The notes beneath the pieces were generated by a model. The model saw nothing but the letters and a program-made list of their open reading frames with translations. It did no database searches and was not told the DNA's origin. From positions 1 through 8,926 of the forward strand of contig PLXW01000154.1 of NCBI GenBank assembly GCA_003151595.1: a DNA stretch of 8,926 nt, in the 5' to 3' direction. The translations under genes and the position numbers were made by a program. This stretch comes from Myxococcales bacterium (GTDB lineage: Bacteria; Myxococcota; Polyangia; Polyangiales; Polyangiaceae). How positions within the stretch are numbered: the stretch's first letter is position 1; each line of letters starts with the position of its first letter. Shown here piece by piece: positions 467 to 6,411 of the stretch.

Positions 467-1507
467 ATGGGCGAGACCGAAGTCGTTCTCCTCTGGCTCG
501 CGACGACCCTCGATCGTTTCGCCATCGTCCAAGCACGAGCGGCCCGGCAGGAGATGCGTGTCACAAGGTGCGCGCCAAAGGCTCTTCGGGCGCGCGATCT
601 GAAGCTCGGGGCCGGTCCTGTCATCGCCGTCCTCGACGATGACTATTCCGCGCCGGGAGCGCTCGGTGCCGGCGTCGACGAGGTCGTTCGCCACTCGGAA
701 CTCACGGACGCCCTGCTCGACCGAGCCGTGGTGCGCGCTTCCGCGCGCGCGCAGGCTCGCCACCGTTGGCTCGCGCAGGAAGCGCGTGAAGACCGCTCAG
801 AAGCGCTGCCATCATTGCTCGACTGGATCTCGATCGAGCTTGCCGCGCACCTGAGCGCCGCGGTGCTCGAAGCGGAAGGTCTCGAGGAGAGCGTGCAGGG
901 ACTCGCGACGCATGACGCGAAGACGCTCGAGTCGATTCCGCGTCACGCAGAGATGCTCGAGATGACGGAGACGGTCCGACACGGGCTGGGGAAGATGACC
1001 GAGCTCCTTGCTGCGGTTCGTACGCTGAGCGGATCGGAAGCGCCCGGAACATCCGTGCGCGAGGTCTTCGTCGCGCTCTCAACCGTGCTCACGAATCGGC
1101 TCGTCCCGATCGCGGATCTCCAAGTCTGCGCCGACGAAGGATGCACTACATCGGTCGCCTCGGCGCGGCTCGTTGCCGCACTGGTGATGCTCGTCGATGA
1201 CGTCTTGGCTCGCGCCGCGCGCGCGGGACACGCGCAGTCACAGAGACGCGTGACTCTCGCGCTACGTGCGTACGTCGTCGGCGACACGACGATCGTCGAG
1301 GTCGAGGATGACGCCGCTGCGTCGAGCTCGGCGGCCGCGCAGCGGCGGCCGTCCGTCGCAGACCTTCGCCTCTGGCTCCGTGAGGAAGGGGCCGACCTCA
1401 TAGTGACTACGACGCCCGACCGCAGAACCACGCGCCTCGTCCTTCCCCACCCGCCAGTCGAGCCGACGACCGACGATCGGAGCCAACGATGGCAATCCTC
1501 CTCGTAG
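467..1507 (+). CDS. Histidine-kinase-like protein with degenerate catalytic motifs (putative pseudokinase)
   Basis: 346 residues from the ATG at 467. The frame stays open to a GTG at 362, but the extra 35 residues look non-coding. No strong ribosome site precedes either start. Residues 50-100 (AVLDDDY, then GAGVDEVVRHSELTDALLDRA) resemble the last third of a receiver domain. Residues 117-185 are helical and align with a HisKA dimerisation domain, but the H-box HELNNPL reads IELAAHL at 123-129, so the phospho-accepting His is Ile. Residues 195-328 follow the HATPase_c layout. The N-box is LVMLVDDVL (239-247) with both Asn lost, the G1 box is DDAAA (281-285) in place of DxGxG, and the family-like end LRLWLREEGADLIV is followed by RLVLP. 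Catalysis is therefore unlikely, and a scaffold or partner-binding role is inferred. The last 19 nt overlap the receiver gene, so the two are probably co-translated. No membrane segment or signal peptide is seen. Confidence 0.7.
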   Translation: MGETEVVLLWLATTLDRFAIVQARAARQEMRVTRCAPKALRARDLKLGAGPVIAVLDDDYSAPGALGAGVDEVVRHSELTDALLDRAVVRASARAQARHRWLAQEAREDRSEALPSLLDWISIELAAHLSAAVLEAEGLEESVQGLATHDAKTLESIPRHAEMLEMTETVRHGLGKMTELLAAVRTLSGSEAPGTSVREVFVALSTVLTNRLVPIADLQVCADEGCTTSVASARLVAALVMLVDDVLARAARAGHAQSQRRVTLALRAYVVGDTTIVEVEDDAAASSSAAAQRRPSVADLRLWLREEGADLIVTTTPDRRTTRLVLPHPPVEPTTDDRSQRWQSSS

Positions 1508-1851
1508 ACGACGATCCGCGCGTTCTTCGCGCGGTCGAGAGGGCCCTTGGCACTTTCGACCTGTCTACCGCGAAGACTTCGACCGAAGCGCTCGCGCTCC
1601 TTGCGACAAGGCCGTTCAACGCGATCGTCGTCGACTACGGGCTCGCACCCGCCGATGGCGTGAGCGTCCTACGCGAGGTCGCTGCGACGTACCCCGCCGT
1701 GCGCAGATACATGATTTCGGGGTTCGAGAGGAAAAGGTTCGACGAGCACATTGCGTCCAATCTCGTGCGATATTTTTTCCGTAAACCACTCGATCTGAAC
1801 GAGCTGCGGAGCGAGTTGGGGACTGTGGGCCTTCACGCCCGCCCAATCTAA
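1489..1851 (+). CDS. Stand-alone response-regulator receiver domain
   Basis: 120 residues, a single REC domain with no output domain. Visible conserved residues are the acidic cluster DDD at 7-9, the phospho-acceptor D49 (IVVDYG), the switch Ser at 77 (YMISGF, the usual T/S position), and K99 in FFRKP preceding the last helix. All catalytic positions expected of the family are present, so it should accept phosphate. The ATG at 1489 is preceded by GGAG at 1479-1482 with 6-nt spacing. It begins inside the 3' end of the pseudokinase gene, so the pair is likely translated together. Stand-alone receivers relay phosphate, act as allosteric partners, or buffer phosphate in phosphorelays. Because the upstream partner appears unable to autophosphorylate, the active kinase encoded at 6411-4723 is the nearest candidate donor (inference). 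The gene's TAA overlaps the stop of the convergent operon. Confidence 0.93.
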   Translation: MAILLVDDDPRVLRAVERALGTFDLSTAKTSTEALALLATRPFNAIVVDYGLAPADGVSVLREVAATYPAVRRYMISGFERKRFDEHIASNLVRYFFRKPLDLNELRSELGTVGLHARPI

Positions 1852-2954
1852 AGCCGAATCTCCGGTGCAAGCGGGGTGGCTCCCACGCCGACGTCGCCCC
1901 ACCGAAGCACGACGGCGCTGGAGCTGGCCACGCTACCGATTGAATAGAGCACGACGAGATCATCCGGCTGGAGACGACCACCGGCCGCAGCCTCGTGGAG
2001 CGCTGCAGGCCACAAGACCGGACCGACGTTTGCATAGCGCGGATAGGTGTTCACGACGCGGTCTCGCTCGACACCTAGCTTGCGCGCGATGAACGCGGAG
2101 AACCACGCCGTTGGTGCGTTGCATGCAAAGACCTTGATGTCGGCGAGCGAAACGCCCGCGATATCAGCCGCCCCGCGGCAGCATTCCTCCACTGTGCTCT
2201 CCGCGACGTTGCGAAGCGCGTCGGCCGCGCCGGGAAACGTTTTCATCCGCATGACCGCACCATCAGAGCGCCCGACGAGCTCGTACGAAATGGCGCCGCA
2301 GCTCTCGGCAGTGTGCGCATTCCGCGCGCCGAGTACCTCGGCTCCATTGCCCCCCGCGGCGACGACGAACGCCGCCGCGCCGTCGCCGATGGTCCAGGCG
2401 AGCGTGTCGGCCGGCTCTGTCACGCGCGAGTAAACGCAGCTCGTGACCACGAGCACGCGATCGTGCCGTCCCGCGCGAACCAGCGAGGACGCGACGTCGA
2501 GCCCGACCAGCGCACTCGAACATGCACTCTCGAGGTTCCATGCCGCCCCTCGCAAACCGAGCGCGCGAGCAAGGAACGCCGATTCGCCGATGCCAGTCTG
2601 GTCCGATGGAAACGTGCAGGACATGAGGAGGTCAATCTCCTCGATCCGCATACCAGCCCACGCGAGCGCCGCCTGCGCAGCGGGGACTGCGATTGCGGAC
2701 GCCGGTTCATCGGCGGCGAGTACGCGGCGCTCGACCGTTCCGCGGAACGGGTCGCCGAGGTACGGCAGCATCTCGATCTCGAATGCGCTGAGCGTGCGGC
2801 CTGAGCCTTGATCCACATTCCACACTTTGCCGAGAGCCCGTTGCTCGATCGAGGACACCGCCTCGGGAAACTCTCGGCGGAAGAAATCGTTCGTCCGTAC
2901 CGTGCGGGGGAACTCGATGGCGATGGATCGCATCGTCGCGCGCCTGGTGCTCAT
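1848..2954 (-). CDS. Ketoacyl-ACP synthase III (FabH)-like thiolase-fold enzyme
   Basis: 368 residues, somewhat longer than FabH (about 320). The nucleophile Cys lies in LESACSSALVGLDVA at C145, in the normal KASIII context. GDGAAAFVV at 190-198 is the family's conserved glycine motif. The Asn of the Cys-His-Asn triad is in RYANVGP (N309). The His position (F-x-P-H-Q-A in FabH) reads FACNAPTAW, so His is replaced by Asn (N279). The enzyme should form an acyl-thioester on C145. With no catalytic His, decarboxylative condensation of malonyl-ACP is doubtful, and acyl transfer or non-decarboxylative condensation is the alternative (inference). Residues 1-80 are more divergent. The start is the ATG at 2954, which overlaps the stop of the ThDP enzyme as ATGA. 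An in-frame Met at residue 8 is the other option. Last gene of the operon. It probably acts with the ThDP enzyme on a shared acyl substrate. Cytosolic, with no signal peptide. Confidence 0.88.
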   Translation of the reverse strand: MSTRRATMRSIAIEFPRTVRTNDFFRREFPEAVSSIEQRALGKVWNVDQGSGRTLSAFEIEMLPYLGDPFRGTVERRVLAADEPASAIAVPAAQAALAWAGMRIEEIDLLMSCTFPSDQTGIGESAFLARALGLRGAAWNLESACSSALVGLDVASSLVRAGRHDRVLVVTSCVYSRVTEPADTLAWTIGDGAAAFVVAAGGNGAEVLGARNAHTAESCGAISYELVGRSDGAVMRMKTFPGAADALRNVAESTVEECCRGAADIAGVSLADIKVFACNAPTAWFSAFIARKLGVERDRVVNTYPRYANVGPVLWPAALHEAAAGGRLQPDDLVVLYSIGSVASSSAVVLRWGDVGVGATPLAPEIRL

Positions 2955-4726
2955 GGTCGCTCTATCTCGATGAAGCCGGCTAGCGAACGCATTCGCTCTC
3001 CCAGTGGCGGCACGATGTCCGGATCAACGCGCACCTCAATGAGCGATGGCCCACCGCGGCGCATCGCTTCGCGGACAGCATCCTGCATTTTTCCGGGAGC
3101 GTCGACGATCCAGGATGACATGCCCATCGCACGCGCAATCGCGGCCACTTCGAGCGGACGGCGATACTTGATGGATTCGAACGCCGTCCCATGACCCAGG
3201 ATCTTGCTGCAATGCCAGGTAATGCCGTGCATGTTGTTGTTCTCGACGACCCAGATGACCGGTATGTCGTATTCGACGGCAGTGAGAAGGTCCATCCCCT
3301 GCATCGTGAAGCAGGCGTCACCAACGATCGCAAAGACCGGCCGGTTCGCCTCCGCGAGCGCGGCACCGATGGGCGCAATCGTGCCGTGGCCCATGGAGCC
3401 GAAGCCGAGATTGATCACGAAGTGCTGCCGCTCGCGGATGCAAAGGTGGTGCATGTTGAAGAGCATGTGCCCGCCGATGTCCGAGAAGATGATGGCGTCG
3501 TCCGGAAGTACCTCCTCGAAGTCGGTGCGCCAGCGTTGGGGCGTGAGAGGGCGCGCCTCCGACGTGCGTTGATCACCATCTTCGTAGCGAGCGTGCGAAC
3601 GCACGAGCGGTGGGCTCGCATTCCACGCGGATTTTGGAGATGCGCCTTCGCGAATGCTGCGATGCAGGTGGTAGACGATCTCGACGAGAATGCTCTGCGC
3701 GTCGCCGACGAGCGCCACCTCGACCGGATAGTTGCGTCCGATCCGATCCGCATCGATGTCGACTTGAATGAGCGCACGCGACGGAAGGAGCTGGGGGCTC
3801 CAGTTGAACGTCGTGGTCTCATTGAGCGAAGCGCCGACCGTCATGAGTACGTCGACGTCGGGGCCAAGGATCGTGTCGCGCGCATCGCGATGACCGGCCA
3901 CGCCGAGGATGCCGAGCGAGCGCGGATCGTTCTCGGGGAAAACCCCTTTGCCGCGCGGCGTGGTGGCCACGCGTGCTGGGAGGAGTTCGGCGAGTGCCTT
4001 TAGGTGCTCCTCGGCACCCGCCGTATAGACACCAGAGCCGGCGAGCAAGATAGGGTACTTCGCGGCGAGGAGAAGCTCCGCGGCTCGCTGGACGGCCTGC
4101 CGGTCGAACGTGCGCGTCTGCGGTCTATAGGTGCGTGGATTGAACCATTCTTCGGTGAGTGGCTTCTCCCACAAGTCGACGGGCACATTCAGGTGTACGG
4201 GACCAGGCCGTCCCGTGAGCGCAAGACGCAGGGCGCGGCGCAGATGGTGCCCGAGGCTGAGCGCTGTCGTCACCATTGCCGAGTACTTCGTGACGGGATC
4301 GAACATCGCGACGATGTCGATGTCCTCGCGCGGTGTCTCTTGCGCAGCCCCTTTTCCGAGCGCATGAGAAGCGACCTGGCCGCTGATCACTAGCAGTGGC
4401 ACGCCGTCCGCGAACGCGCATGCAACCGCCGTGAGCATGTTTGTCGCGCCAGGTCCCGACGTTCCGGCGCACACCGCGAGCTGGCGACTCACGCGCGCGA
4501 AGCCGTCGGCCATGAACGCGCCGCCTTCTTCGTGCTTGGGAACGATGAGCCGCATCACCTTGGAGCGCTCGATGGCCTCGAAGAAAGGATGCAACAGCCC
4601 ACCGGGTATGCCGAAGACGACGCGCACTCCTTCGGCGTGCAGATATTTCAGGAGCACGTCGACGACGCGCGGTTCCTGCGGCGTAGGTTCTGGGGACGGC
4701 GCCGACGGGTGGCGCGAGGTACTCAT
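2951..4726 (-). CDS. ThDP-dependent acetolactate-synthase-like enzyme
   Basis: 591 residues with the three-domain order of the acetohydroxyacid synthase/pyruvate oxidase family. The N-terminal Pyr domain (about 20-190) has GIPGGLLHPFFEA, the catalytic Glu in PKHEEGGAFMADGFARV (E66), and the SGPGATNML loop (90-98). The central domain (about 208-350) has GKGVFPENDPRSLGILGV and the VDIDAD segment. The C-terminal PP domain (about 395-570) carries the ThDP/Mg motif GDACFTM at 469-475, ending in NNN at 496-498 (usual form GDG ... NN, so the third residue is Ala). These enzymes decarboxylate a 2-oxoacid and pass the activated acyl to an acceptor. The substrate cannot be read from sequence, and true AHAS is unlikely because no regulatory subunit or branched-chain genes are nearby. 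A purine-rich GGAGAG at 4737-4742 precedes the start. Both ends are in ATGA overlaps, which indicates coupled translation. The N-terminal 20 residues are Pro/Ser-rich and probably disordered. Confidence 0.93.
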   Translation of the reverse strand: MSTSRHPSAPSPEPTPQEPRVVDVLLKYLHAEGVRVVFGIPGGLLHPFFEAIERSKVMRLIVPKHEEGGAFMADGFARVSRQLAVCAGTSGPGATNMLTAVACAFADGVPLLVISGQVASHALGKGAAQETPREDIDIVAMFDPVTKYSAMVTTALSLGHHLRRALRLALTGRPGPVHLNVPVDLWEKPLTEEWFNPRTYRPQTRTFDRQAVQRAAELLLAAKYPILLAGSGVYTAGAEEHLKALAELLPARVATTPRGKGVFPENDPRSLGILGVAGHRDARDTILGPDVDVLMTVGASLNETTTFNWSPQLLPSRALIQVDIDADRIGRNYPVEVALVGDAQSILVEIVYHLHRSIREGASPKSAWNASPPLVRSHARYEDGDQRTSEARPLTPQRWRTDFEEVLPDDAIIFSDIGGHMLFNMHHLCIRERQHFVINLGFGSMGHGTIAPIGAALAEANRPVFAIVGDACFTMQGMDLLTAVEYDIPVIWVVENNNMHGITWHCSKILGHGTAFESIKYRRPLEVAAIARAMGMSSWIVDAPGKMQDAVREAMRRGGPSLIEVRVDPDIVPPLGERMRSLAGFIEIERP

Positions 4727-6411
4727 GCGCTTTTCACTCTCCGGATTGTAAGGACGCGGCCGAGCGTCTGCTCGTAGGGCTCCGGCCTCTTCTCGCTAGC
4801 CGCGCGCGGAGGGTCGCTCCGTGCCGGCATCTCGATTGGGAAGTGCACCCAGAACGTCGTACCGTGCTGGGGCTTCGACATGACGTCGAGGTGTCCGCCG
4901 ACCTGACCGAGGAGCTGGACGACGACCGACAGCCCGACGCCATGCCCGGACGGACCTCTCGGTGCGCGCGGCACGGTTCCCGGCCGGAACATCCCTTCGA
5001 GATCGGCGGCAGCGATGCCTCGCCCAGTGTCCGAAACCTTGATGATGAGCGAGGTCGGAGTGCCATCCACCTCGACTACGATGCTCCCGACCTCAGTATA
5101 CTTCGCAGCGTTCGTGAGAATGTTGTCGAGTACGCGATCGAAAAGCAGAGGATCGGTGGAGACCGCCTCCGGGGCCTCCCGCGTTCGAAAGACGCTTGCG
5201 CGGATGTCGCGGCCGAAGACCAGCGCGCGGATGCGACGCCGGAGTCGGTCTGTGATCGACGCGACGTCGAGTCGCTGCGCCGACACCTGCTTCACGACCA
5301 TCGAGCCGGTGATCGCTTTCATCAACTCGTCGAGGAGCGCGCTGATTTGTACGGTTGCTTCGTCGAACTCGCCGAGCACCTCACCCGTCTGAGGGCCGAG
5401 GTCCTGCTGCCGCAGGAAATCGATGTTCGCGCGCAGGGCCGTGAGGGGGTTGTTGAGGTCGTGTGATACGCCGCGGAGCGTCGAATCACGAGCGTTCTGC
5501 ACCTCACCGATGCGATCGAGTACTTGCTGGAACGCGAGCGTGCGCTCCGTCGTTTCGTCCTCAAGCATCCGCCCCCAGTCGCGTTGGCGCTGGTGGAGTT
5601 CGAGGAGTTCGCGACGCGCGTCTGCCGCTTCGAGCGCGAGGTCCTTGAGCGCATCGTTGATTTCCTCGCCGACCCTCAGGTTCGTTCTGCTGGTCGTACG
5701 AAGTTCGTAGATGTGGCCAACGGCCAGGCCGAGCAGCGCAATCGACGCCGTTGCCGCAGTCGCGATGAGATGCGTTCCAGCGAGCAGTGACGCGATCGCC
5801 GAGCCACCTGCCAGCCCCAGGACCGGCGGAAGCCATCGTCTCGCGTCGTACCATTGGAGCCGATAGACGCAGGCATCGTCTCCGAGCGCGACGCATGCCT
5901 CCTCTCGCAGGAGCGCTGGCGGGAGATCCCAGAGCGTTGGAAGCGCCGCGGTCTGCGCCTGCTGCATCAAGCAGTGCAGGCGGCTGATCGGAGTCGGTCG
6001 CAGGAGCCGCGCGTGCATCGAAGTGCGCGTGTGGGAAAGGATTTTCACCTCGCCGTTCGTCGTCACGAGCTTGTAGGTTTGCCCGGCGGCTGCGTAGACG
6101 GCACCTGGTGACGTCGCCCACATCACGTAGCGGATGGCGCCATAGGCGTCCGCAAGCCCGTACACGCTTGCCTGCTTGAAAACCTCGTCGCTGGGCATGC
6201 GCGCACGCGCGGCGGTCAGCACCGCTTCAATGCGCTTCAGCGCCACCCACAGGGTCCGGCCGTCGAGCTCTTCCGGCGCGAAGCTGCCCGCTCCGGCGAC
6301 TTCGGCGAACACCGTCGCGCCGTACTCGGCTCGCACGAAATTCATGAGCGTGCGGAGAATTCGGGCGTTGTACTGCGCCGTCTCTCTGGCGTTGGGAGCA
6401 GGATTGGACAC
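4723..6411 (-). CDS. Membrane-associated sensor histidine kinase
   Basis: 562 residues from a GTG start. A possible sensor domain spans about 10-190. It ends in EEACVALGDDACVYRLQW (C173, C181), a Cys-x-GDxxC-x-Y-x-W style ending that I associate with V4R-type or related small-molecule sensor domains (tentative). Two hydrophobic segments (about 193-212 and 215-234) form a membrane hairpin, so both ends would be cytoplasmic. A charged helical linker, probably a coiled coil, covers 245-310. The HisKA H-box is SHDLNNPL with H317. HATPase_c motifs are all present: N-box FDRVLDNILTNAAKY (N430, N434), G1 DTGRG (461-465), and G2 GHGVG (489-493). The last 35 residues are Pro/Arg-rich with no recognised domain. 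First gene of the operon, its TGA overlapping the ATG of the ThDP enzyme. No receiver or output domain is fused, so it needs a separate partner. The REC at 1489-1851 is the nearest. Confidence 0.93.
   Translation of the reverse strand: MSNPAPNARETAQYNARILRTLMNFVRAEYGATVFAEVAGAGSFAPEELDGRTLWVALKRIEAVLTAARARMPSDEVFKQASVYGLADAYGAIRYVMWATSPGAVYAAAGQTYKLVTTNGEVKILSHTRTSMHARLLRPTPISRLHCLMQQAQTAALPTLWDLPPALLREEACVALGDDACVYRLQWYDARRWLPPVLGLAGGSAIASLLAGTHLIATAATASIALLGLAVGHIYELRTTSRTNLRVGEEINDALKDLALEAADARRELLELHQRQRDWGRMLEDETTERTLAFQQVLDRIGEVQNARDSTLRGVSHDLNNPLTALRANIDFLRQQDLGPQTGEVLGEFDEATVQISALLDELMKAITGSMVVKQVSAQRLDVASITDRLRRRIRALVFGRDIRASVFRTREAPEAVSTDPLLFDRVLDNILTNAAKYTEVGSIVVEVDGTPTSLIIKVSDTGRGIAAADLEGMFRPGTVPRAPRGPSGHGVGLSVVVQLLGQVGGHLDVMSKPQHGTTFWVHFPIEMPARSDPPRAASEKRPEPYEQTLGRVLTIRRVKSA

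What the first reader, a model, noticed from the sequence alone, without database searches (positions are those of the whole stretch)
1848..6411. A sensor kinase translationally coupled to a ThDP enzyme and a KASIII-like enzyme: candidate make-and-sense signalling locus
Seen: three minus-strand genes joined by two ATGA overlaps, in the order intact histidine kinase, ThDP-dependent acyl-transferring enzyme, FabH-like enzyme. Known: ThDP enzymes of this family form acyloins (alpha-hydroxyketones) or transfer acyl groups, and alpha-hydroxyketones are signals in the lqs and cqs systems, where a synthase gene sits with a sensor kinase. Inference: the two enzymes make a small acyloin-like or acyl-derived molecule that the kinase senses, a similar circuit built from different enzymes. 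A stand-alone receiver lies directly across the convergent junction.
Basis: partly seen in the sequence, partly recalled or inferred. Interest (0 to 1): 0.72.

Follow-up and report, generated by a model that had tools for sequence, protein, structure and literature searches.

The report
Sensor kinase wired to enzyme pair
In myxobacteria-like bacteria a sensor kinase is repeatedly found joined, as one gene cassette, to an enzyme that probably builds a small keto molecule, which suggests (but does not prove) a circuit in which cells make and sense a metabolite of their own.

Summary
In detail: histidine kinase (HK), ThDP enzyme and KASIII-like enzyme lie on the minus strand, joined by two 4-nt ATGA overlaps. 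The cassette is neither chance nor unique. In 377 genomes of one phylum the HK family occurs in 13 and close relatives of the ThDP enzyme in 15; the 13 are among the 15, and in 12 of 13 an HK gene directly precedes the enzyme gene. The HK N-terminus, unmatched in Pfam, is predicted to be an H-NOX/V4R-fold domain with the three-cysteine spacing of the zinc site of the phenol sensor DmpR: a likely small-molecule sensor. The slot after the ThDP gene mostly holds a degenerate citryl-CoA-lyase-like pair; on the enzyme tree a KASIII fills it in three separate lineages. Elsewhere such KASIIIs sit beside ThDP genes, in two genomes in an operon with a kinase of this family. Carbazole biosynthesis offers a ThDP-KASIII precedent. 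It is not an lqs/cqs system, and the convergent receiver is not conserved.

The parts
4723..6411 (-). sensor histidine kinase, 562 aa (sensor domain, hydrophobic stretch, HisKA, HATPase_c)
5842..6372 (-). N-terminal sensor domain (residues 14-190), predicted H-NOX/V4R fold with C147, E170, C173, C181 as likely zinc site
   Evidence: model (pLDDT 89.3); fold; conservation; DmpR zinc residues
5701..5832 (-). hydrophobic stretch (residues about 194-237), possible membrane hairpin placing the sensor domain in the cytosol
   Evidence: Kyte-Doolittle hydropathy only; topology inferred
5320..5487 (-). HisKA dimerisation/phospho-acceptor domain with His317
4831..5154 (-). HATPase_c catalytic domain
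4723..4726 (-). ATGA overlap of HK stop and ThDP start; a 4-nt overlap is kept in 10 of 16 HK/ThDP junctions measured (window included)
2951..4726 (-). ThDP-dependent enzyme of the acetolactate synthase superfamily, 591 aa, catalytic Glu66 and ThDP motif kept; nearest solved relative BbmA
2951..2954 (-). ATGA overlap of ThDP stop and KASIII start
1848..2954 (-). KASIII-like (thiolase-fold) enzyme, 368 aa, active site Cys145-Asn279-Asn309 in place of Cys-His-Asn
1489..1851 (+). stand-alone receiver domain, convergent; partner role unproven and position not conserved

Best explanation
A conserved cassette of Myxococcota in which a sensor kinase and a ThDP enzyme are made together and linked by a shared metabolite. 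Shown by sequence: HK and ThDP enzyme co-inherited and often translationally coupled; a third acyl-CoA-type slot filled by a citryl-CoA-lyase-like pair or, in three lineages, by a KASIII. [quoted passage not shown] the third enzyme joins or trims it with an acyl thioester; the product or a close intermediate binds the H-NOX/V4R-type domain of the kinase, which relays the level of the metabolite to a response regulator, usually encoded elsewhere. Because the sensor domain is probably cytosolic, the ligand is internal or membrane-permeable.
Against: 6 of 33 HK loci have no ThDP gene in the neighbourhood shown; three of these lie in large genomes that hold only 32-35% identical ThDP relatives, while G412 has a 68% relative on another contig. 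2 of 15 ThDP genomes lack the HK. None of the 19 fetched KASIII loci has a full-length HK of this family, and the genome with the closest KASIII found (59%, G383) is listed without HK. The KASIII lacks the catalytic His in the window, and that of L146/L147 lacks the Cys; the lyase-like second gene has Val or Ile at the usual His in 12 of 12, so what the third slot does is unclear. No regulator gene is conserved beside the HK of the main form. Sensor divergence shows no clear extra change where the third gene was swapped. MopR/DmpR matches have low TM-scores (0.41-0.48) and are not in VIA's 50 rows. No ligand, product or expression data.
Confidence: 0.42

Rival explanations
1. Pathway-specific regulation: the kinase senses some other cue (aromatic or hydrophobic compound, membrane or redox state) and switches on the enzymes, which make a specialised metabolite that is not the kinase's ligand.
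For: Scytonemin clusters have an acyloin-type ThDP gene (scyA) next to a two-component system conserved in four cyanobacteria and proposed to regulate it (passages). V4R domains of DmpR, MopR and PcrS sense external phenols (passages). HK copies without a nearby ThDP gene exist.
Against: ATGA coupling of HK with enzyme in 10 of 16 junctions measured and near-strict co-occurrence seem tighter than usual for a regulator (inference); no conserved response regulator beside the main form.
Confidence: 0.3
2. Non-catalytic metabolite sensing: the ThDP enzyme with its degenerate third partner forms a complex that reports 2-oxo acid or acyl-CoA levels to the kinase by contact; no signal molecule is made.
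For: Third-slot proteins carry altered active sites: KASIII Cys-Asn-Asn, Leu-His-Asn or Cys-His-Thr in the three HK-linked lineages; the second lyase-like protein has Val or Ile where GFGH (recalled) has His, 12 of 12. Translational coupling suggests similar amounts.
Against: The ThDP enzyme keeps catalytic Glu and GDG/GDA motif in 33 of 33 rows; the sensor domain has its own probable ligand-binding fold.
Confidence: 0.12
3. Primary metabolism: a local branched-chain or fatty-acid synthesis unit that happens to carry its own kinase.
For: The best curated family is biosynthetic acetolactate synthase (392.4 bits) and the KASIII resembles FabH.
Against: Both lie well below the curated cut-offs (392.4 of 538.35; 115.7 of 249); close relatives of the enzyme are sparse (15 of 377 genomes at E <= 1e-150); no ilvN-like protein among the 8 window proteins scanned.
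Confidence: 0.1
4. Neighbours without functional link; linkage is inherited inertia.
For: The HK and ThDP trees agree in several well-supported groups, as any linked genes would.
Against: The third gene was replaced three times while HK-ThDP stayed together, and the same HK family is linked to ThDP+KASIII in a second, differently built operon.
Confidence: 0.04

Closest known systems
Carbazole biosynthesis CqsB3/CqsB1 (NzsH/NzsJ): ThDP enzyme plus KASIII-like enzyme (PMC7466098, passages)
   Same: A ThDP enzyme with a KASIII-like partner; [quoted passage not shown]
   Different: No kinase in the passages seen; a cyclase (CqsB2) completes the skeleton there and none was seen among the window proteins scanned; the window KASIII lacks the usual His.
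lqs/cqs alpha-hydroxyketone circuits (PMC3376566, passages)
   Same: Synthase gene beside a sensor kinase gene; possible hydroxyketone-type product.
   Different: PLP-dependent synthase and six-TM sensor there; ThDP enzyme and V4R-like soluble sensor domain here.
Scytonemin cluster scyA with two-component system NpF1277/NpF1278 (PMC2726228 and PMC4870267, passages)
   Same: Acyloin-type ThDP gene next to a two-component system; ThDP enzymes that accompany these KASIIIs elsewhere are mostly ScyA-like (6 of 9 tested).
   Different: The window's ThDP enzyme is not ScyA-like; the kinase there is a proposed regulator of a pigment cluster; no KASIII or lyase-like gene in the part of the gene list seen.
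V4R sensors DmpR/MopR/PoxR and the V4R kinase PcrS (PMC7264223, PMC10715001, passages)
   Same: Predicted fold (with H-NOX) and the three-cysteine zinc spacing; V4R coupled to a histidine kinase is known (PcrS).
   Different: Pfam V4R gives no match for the window protein; no conserved His for a phenol anchor was seen in the alignment; encoded with a synthase, not with a catabolic pathway.
Photopyrone synthase PpyS, a ketosynthase that makes a quorum-sensing signal (PMC4578411, passages)
   Same: Precedent for a ketosynthase as signal maker.
   Different: No ThDP enzyme is mentioned in that paper's text (term search); not closely compared here.
BbmA (PDB 8x3x) and CsmA (8x3z), ThDP enzymes
   Same: Nearest solved relatives of the ThDP enzyme (458.7 and 318.3 bits).
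   Different: What they catalyse could not be learned here; no paper on them was found in the library.

Membership tests
lqs/cqs alpha-hydroxyketone systems | PLP-dependent autoinducer synthase (LqsA/CqsA) | tested here: not met
   The synthase here is a TPP_enzyme_N/M/C protein.
lqs/cqs alpha-hydroxyketone systems | sensor kinase with six N-terminal transmembrane helices | tested here: not met
   One hydrophobic stretch at residues 194-237 by Kyte-Doolittle, preceded by a domain modelled as soluble.
lqs/cqs alpha-hydroxyketone systems | synthase gene and kinase gene linked | tested here: met
   22 of 33 HK loci run directly into the ThDP gene; that the enzyme is a signal synthase is inferred.
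Carbazole-type ThDP/KASIII clusters (CqsB3/CqsB1/CqsB2) | ThDP enzyme gene adjacent to a KASIII-like gene | tested here: met
   Window; 17 of 19 fetched KASIII loci directly, one more with one gene between.
Carbazole-type ThDP/KASIII clusters (CqsB3/CqsB1/CqsB2) | cyclase gene of the CqsB2 kind | tested here: inconclusive
   None among the 8 window proteins scanned; the window's genome is not held.
Carbazole-type ThDP/KASIII clusters (CqsB3/CqsB1/CqsB2) | KASIII-like enzyme that keeps the catalytic residues of NzsJ | tested here: inconclusive
   The passage seen says NzsJ homologues keep them but not which they are; the window has Cys-Asn-Asn.
V4R domain (PF02830) | zinc site of three Cys and one Glu | tested here: met
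   C147, E170, C173, C181 invariant in 18 sequences; in the wider 17 C147 and C181 invariant, E170 and C173 at least 90%. Cys spacing equals DmpR's. Glu is 3 residues before the middle Cys here, 5 in that paper's numbering. Metal binding itself untested.
V4R domain (PF02830) | Pfam model match at gathering score | tested here: not met
   No match for the window protein; 8 of 17 family members match weakly, best E 0.0064.
V4R domain (PF02830) | fold of solved V4R sensors | tested here: inconclusive
   Foldseek to MopR, DmpR, PoxR at E 1.9e-4 to 5.3e-4 but TM-scores 0.41-0.48; H-NOX ranks higher; these chains are not in the 50 rows.
H-NOX (heme NO/O2 sensor) | fold | tested here: met
H-NOX (heme NO/O2 sensor) | conserved proximal heme histidine (recalled) | tested here: not met
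   No His among the invariant or nearly invariant columns of the sensor part in 18 full-length or 17 N-terminal sequences.
FabH / beta-ketoacyl-ACP synthase III | Cys-His-Asn triad (recalled) | tested here: not met
   Cys145 and Asn309 kept; the His position is Asn in 20 of 23 aligned, the window included.
FabH / beta-ketoacyl-ACP synthase III | curated NCBIfam cut-off | tested here: not met
   115.7 of 249 (PRK09352), 101.8 of 292.1 (TIGR00747); the Pfam domains are above cut-off.
Biosynthetic acetolactate synthase (IlvB) | TIGR00118 cut-off | tested here: not met
   392.4 of 538.35.
ScyA-type acyloin-forming ThDP enzymes | best match to NF035927/NF035923 | tested here: not met
   Not among the 25 best of 55 families for the window enzyme.

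The most novel reading that the evidence does not exclude
A new class of metabolite-signalling cassette in Myxococcota: a V4R-type sensor kinase reads the product of its own translationally coupled ThDP synthase, and the finishing enzyme is exchangeable between two unrelated folds (a degenerate citryl-CoA-lyase-like pair, or a KASIII recruited three times), so that lineages can rewrite the signal chemistry while keeping kinase and synthase; a sister form feeds the same kinase family into a partner-switching (STAS/SpoIIE/RsbT-like) module.
Probability: 0.33. Interest if true: 0.85.

Novelty: new variant of a known kind. Interest (0 to 1): 0.62.

Why it matters
Myxobacteria are social predators with very many kinases, most without a known ligand (recalled). 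Here the gene order itself names a candidate ligand source for one kinase family, which turns an orphan sensor into a testable pair of synthase and receptor. Three replacements of a citryl-CoA-lyase-like pair by KASIII would be an unusual natural exchange of one fold for another in the same slot, and a handle for finding the chemistry. The ThDP-KASIII pairs found in the same phylum look like small biosynthetic units whose products I could not find described.

Tried and rejected
Chance neighbourhood: rejected by co-occurrence and adjacency.

The convergent receiver as conserved partner: 12 hits in the called genes of 54 neighbourhoods, the best (59.9 bits) inside a 646-aa protein, no matching stand-alone gene beside the enzymes; the gene before it (467-1507 +) had no hit at E <= 1e-3. 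The neighbourhoods are of limited length and the gene calls are my own script's.

Sensor domain by sequence alone: Pfam gave nothing for the window protein; the profile search of solved structures gave only weak unrelated hits, best E 0.18; the fold prediction resolved it.

What BbmA and CsmA do: searches by name and by PDB code gave no paper on them (listings only). PMC12247030 does not name them.

A link to the myxobacterial pheromone stigmolone (idea from memory): none of the 10 papers listed holds the word; dropped.

Ligand co-adaptation: identities of sensor versus kinase domain show no clear extra sensor change where the third gene was swapped.

Close relatives of the window's KASIII: 28 of 317 genomes of the class at E <= 1e-80, best 59% (G383); no genome of the window's own clade among them; the neighbourhood of G383's copy was not fetched.

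Search for a prior description: (5 of 6 terms required) listed no paper; (kinase and sensor terms) was looked at as a listing only and did not name the cassette. Neither is exhaustive, and subscription journals are mostly absent.

Rows dropped before counts: G286 (match to the kinase part only); P0125 and P0140 of the 20 HK proteins were left out of alignment A1; of 26 KASIII places, two were already in hand (L079, L067) and five weaker ones were not examined; the ATGA overlap was measured on 16 junctions (the window and 15 of the 22 others), not on all; G458 (nothing in the third slot) was not counted in the state changes, and the four database rows there carry the KASIII label from matching contig lengths only. 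Two HK loci (G159, G433) are cut by a contig end.

Catalytic motifs of KASIII, citrate synthase and H-NOX (triad, GFGH, heme His) are recalled, not from a call.
Full report
WHAT IS THERE. On the minus strand lie a sensor histidine kinase (4723-6411), a ThDP-dependent enzyme (2951-4726) and a KASIII-like enzyme (1848-2954), each joined to the next by a 4-nt ATGA overlap. Pfam confirms HisKA+HATPase_c, the three TPP-enzyme domains, and ACP_syn_III with its C domain. Across a 4-nt tail-to-tail overlap lies a single receiver domain (1489-1851 +).

CONSERVATION OF THE KINASE-ENZYME PAIR. A scan of one genome per species gave 13 loci; six encode a ThDP enzyme at 57-78% identity (the other seven at 28-33%), and in five of these six a kinase of the same family, sensor domain included, lies directly before it; the sixth has none. 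In 377 genomes of the phylum of one of them (G001), the kinase family is found in 13 (14 at E <= 1e-60, one of them matching the kinase part only and dropped) and the ThDP enzyme (E <= 1e-150) in 15; the 13 are a subset of the 15 (hypergeometric 2.6e-22, uncorrected for kinship). In 12 of the 13 a kinase gene directly precedes the enzyme gene (in G001 one of three kinase copies); in G052 two genes lie between. A further search of 183 genomes of one order gave 22 genomes with the kinase at E <= 1e-120. Over all 33 kinase loci in 29 genomes: 22 directly before the ThDP gene, 1 with two genes between, 2 in a larger operon with another ThDP enzyme and KASIII, 2 with a ThDP-family gene 1-2 kb away in divergent orientation, 6 with none in the neighbourhood shown. 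Of these last, G412 has a 68% ThDP relative on another contig, and G465, G466, G467 have only 32-35% relatives. The 4-nt overlap of kinase and enzyme is kept in 10 of 16 junctions measured, the rest lying between a 1-nt overlap and a 35-nt gap.

THE THIRD SLOT. Of the 23 loci with kinase and close ThDP enzyme, 15 have two small genes (about 230 and 265 aa) after the enzyme gene, 2 have one of them (one of these two at a contig end), 1 has them between kinase and enzyme (G052), 1 has them before the kinase (G486), 1 has neither (G458) and 3 have a KASIII (G002, G449, G450). The small genes are distant relatives of citrate synthase and citryl-CoA lyase: profile searches give 4.1e-6 to a citrate synthase for the first and 6.6e-14 to citryl-CoA lyase for the second, with NCBIfam citryl-CoA lyase models well below cut-off. 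At the His of the recalled GFGH motif the second has Val or Ile in 12 of 12. On the tree of the ThDP enzymes a KASIII stands in this slot in three separate places: the window's clade of five, G002, and the pair G449/G450; the pair-versus-KASIII state needs three changes (quick tree with an unresolved backbone). The three sets of KASIII come from different parts of the KASIII tree (quick tree, long branches flagged). So KASIII seems able to stand in for the lyase-like pair. For the window's own clade the gene order itself was read only in the window; in three relatives kinase, ThDP enzyme and KASIII are listed with longest contigs of identical length (45,655; 1,152,634; 8,409 bases), and in a fourth (28,743) ThDP enzyme and KASIII. 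The order HK-ThDP-KASIII was read directly in G002, G449 and G450, with KASIIIs of other lineages.

KASIII WITH THDP ELSEWHERE. KASIIIs like the window's occur in 22 of 377 genomes at E <= 1e-70, in 26 places. I fetched 19 of these neighbourhoods; two more were in hand and five were not examined. In 17 of 19 a ThDP gene is adjacent, in one it is one gene away, in one (near a contig end) none was called; some of the 19 are close kin. The ThDP partner is usually ScyA-like: best match for 6 of 9 tested, though below the cut-offs. ScyA is reported to couple two aromatic 2-oxo acids to a labile beta-keto acid (PMC4870267, one passage). In G001 and G404 the ThDP and KASIII genes share a ten-gene run with STAS, SpoIIE and HATPase_c_2 proteins, a receiver-HTH regulator and a kinase of the window's own family (in G404 only the regulator and the ThDP enzyme were scanned against Pfam, and its HTH is below cut-off). 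In two other loci (L123, L124) different hybrid kinases directly follow the KASIII, and in L120 a STAS/SpoIIE set lies nearby. None of the 19 has a full-length kinase of the window's family, and in most no signalling gene is adjacent.

ENZYME CHEMISTRY. The ThDP enzyme keeps the catalytic Glu and the GDG/GDA motif in 33 of 33 rows compared. Its nearest solved relatives are BbmA and CsmA, on which I found no paper. It falls below the cut-off for biosynthetic acetolactate synthase. Enzymes of this superfamily commonly make alpha-hydroxy-beta-keto acids (recalled). In carbazole biosynthesis CqsB3 makes such an acid and the KASIII-like CqsB1 condenses it with an acyl-ACP (PMC7466098, passages). 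The window KASIII has Cys-Asn-Asn where Cys-His-Asn is canonical (recalled); the His position is Asn in 20 of 23 aligned, so it is a family trait and its reaction may differ. A ketosynthase that makes a quorum-sensing signal is known (PpyS; PMC4578411, passages).

HOW IT PROBABLY WORKS. Shown: the pair HK-ThDP is an inherited unit; the kinase is intact; the enzyme looks active. Inferred: the enzyme pair makes a small keto compound; the kinase's sensor domain binds it or a precursor; phosphate goes to a regulator, unlinked in the main form. The alternative that the kinase senses something else and merely controls the enzymes is nearly as good, and scytonemin offers a published parallel (PMC2726228, passages).

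RESULTS AGAINST. Six kinase loci stand without a ThDP gene nearby, and two ThDP genomes lack the kinase. The closest KASIII found in a held genome (59%, G383) lies in a genome listed without the kinase. Sensor divergence does not clearly jump where the third gene changed. Active-site changes leave the role of the third slot open. Nothing was measured in cells.

NOVELTY. Synthase-plus-kinase circuits are a known kind (lqs, cqs; PMC3376566, passages), but this shares neither the synthase class nor the sensor type. The literature searches made (listings) showed no description of the cassette, which is no proof of absence.

Noticed in passing
L070, L071, L073 (G366, G105, G311): The HK-ThDP-lyase-like cassette sits near genes that look by eye like type VI secretion (TssF/TssH-like) and FHA-domain genes in three genomes whose ThDP enzymes form one clade.
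   Followed up: no
L079 8043-16635 (G001) and L141 801-9387 (G404): Conserved run of ten genes: ThDP enzyme, KASIII, RsbT-like ATPase, SpoIIE, STAS, a 190-aa protein without a Pfam match above cut-off, HAMP/STAS, HATPase_c_2, receiver-HTH regulator and V4R-like kinase.
   Followed up: partly
L106-L124: ThDP-KASIII gene pairs, often ScyA-like, are scattered over Myxococcota with varied neighbours (by eye aldo/keto reductase-like, FAD-dependent, other kinases): apparently uncharacterised small biosynthetic units.
   Followed up: partly
window 467-1507 (+): A 346-aa protein without a Pfam or NCBIfam match and without a hit in 54 related neighbourhoods; by eye a degenerate kinase-like protein, overlapping the receiver gene.
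   Followed up: partly
L145 2419-4142 (G447): The ThDP gene after the kinase looks split into two open pieces; assembly error or decay not decided.
   Followed up: no
L146 6584-7588, L147 5488-6486: KASIII in the HK cassette with Leu where the catalytic Cys should be, His and Asn kept.
   Followed up: partly
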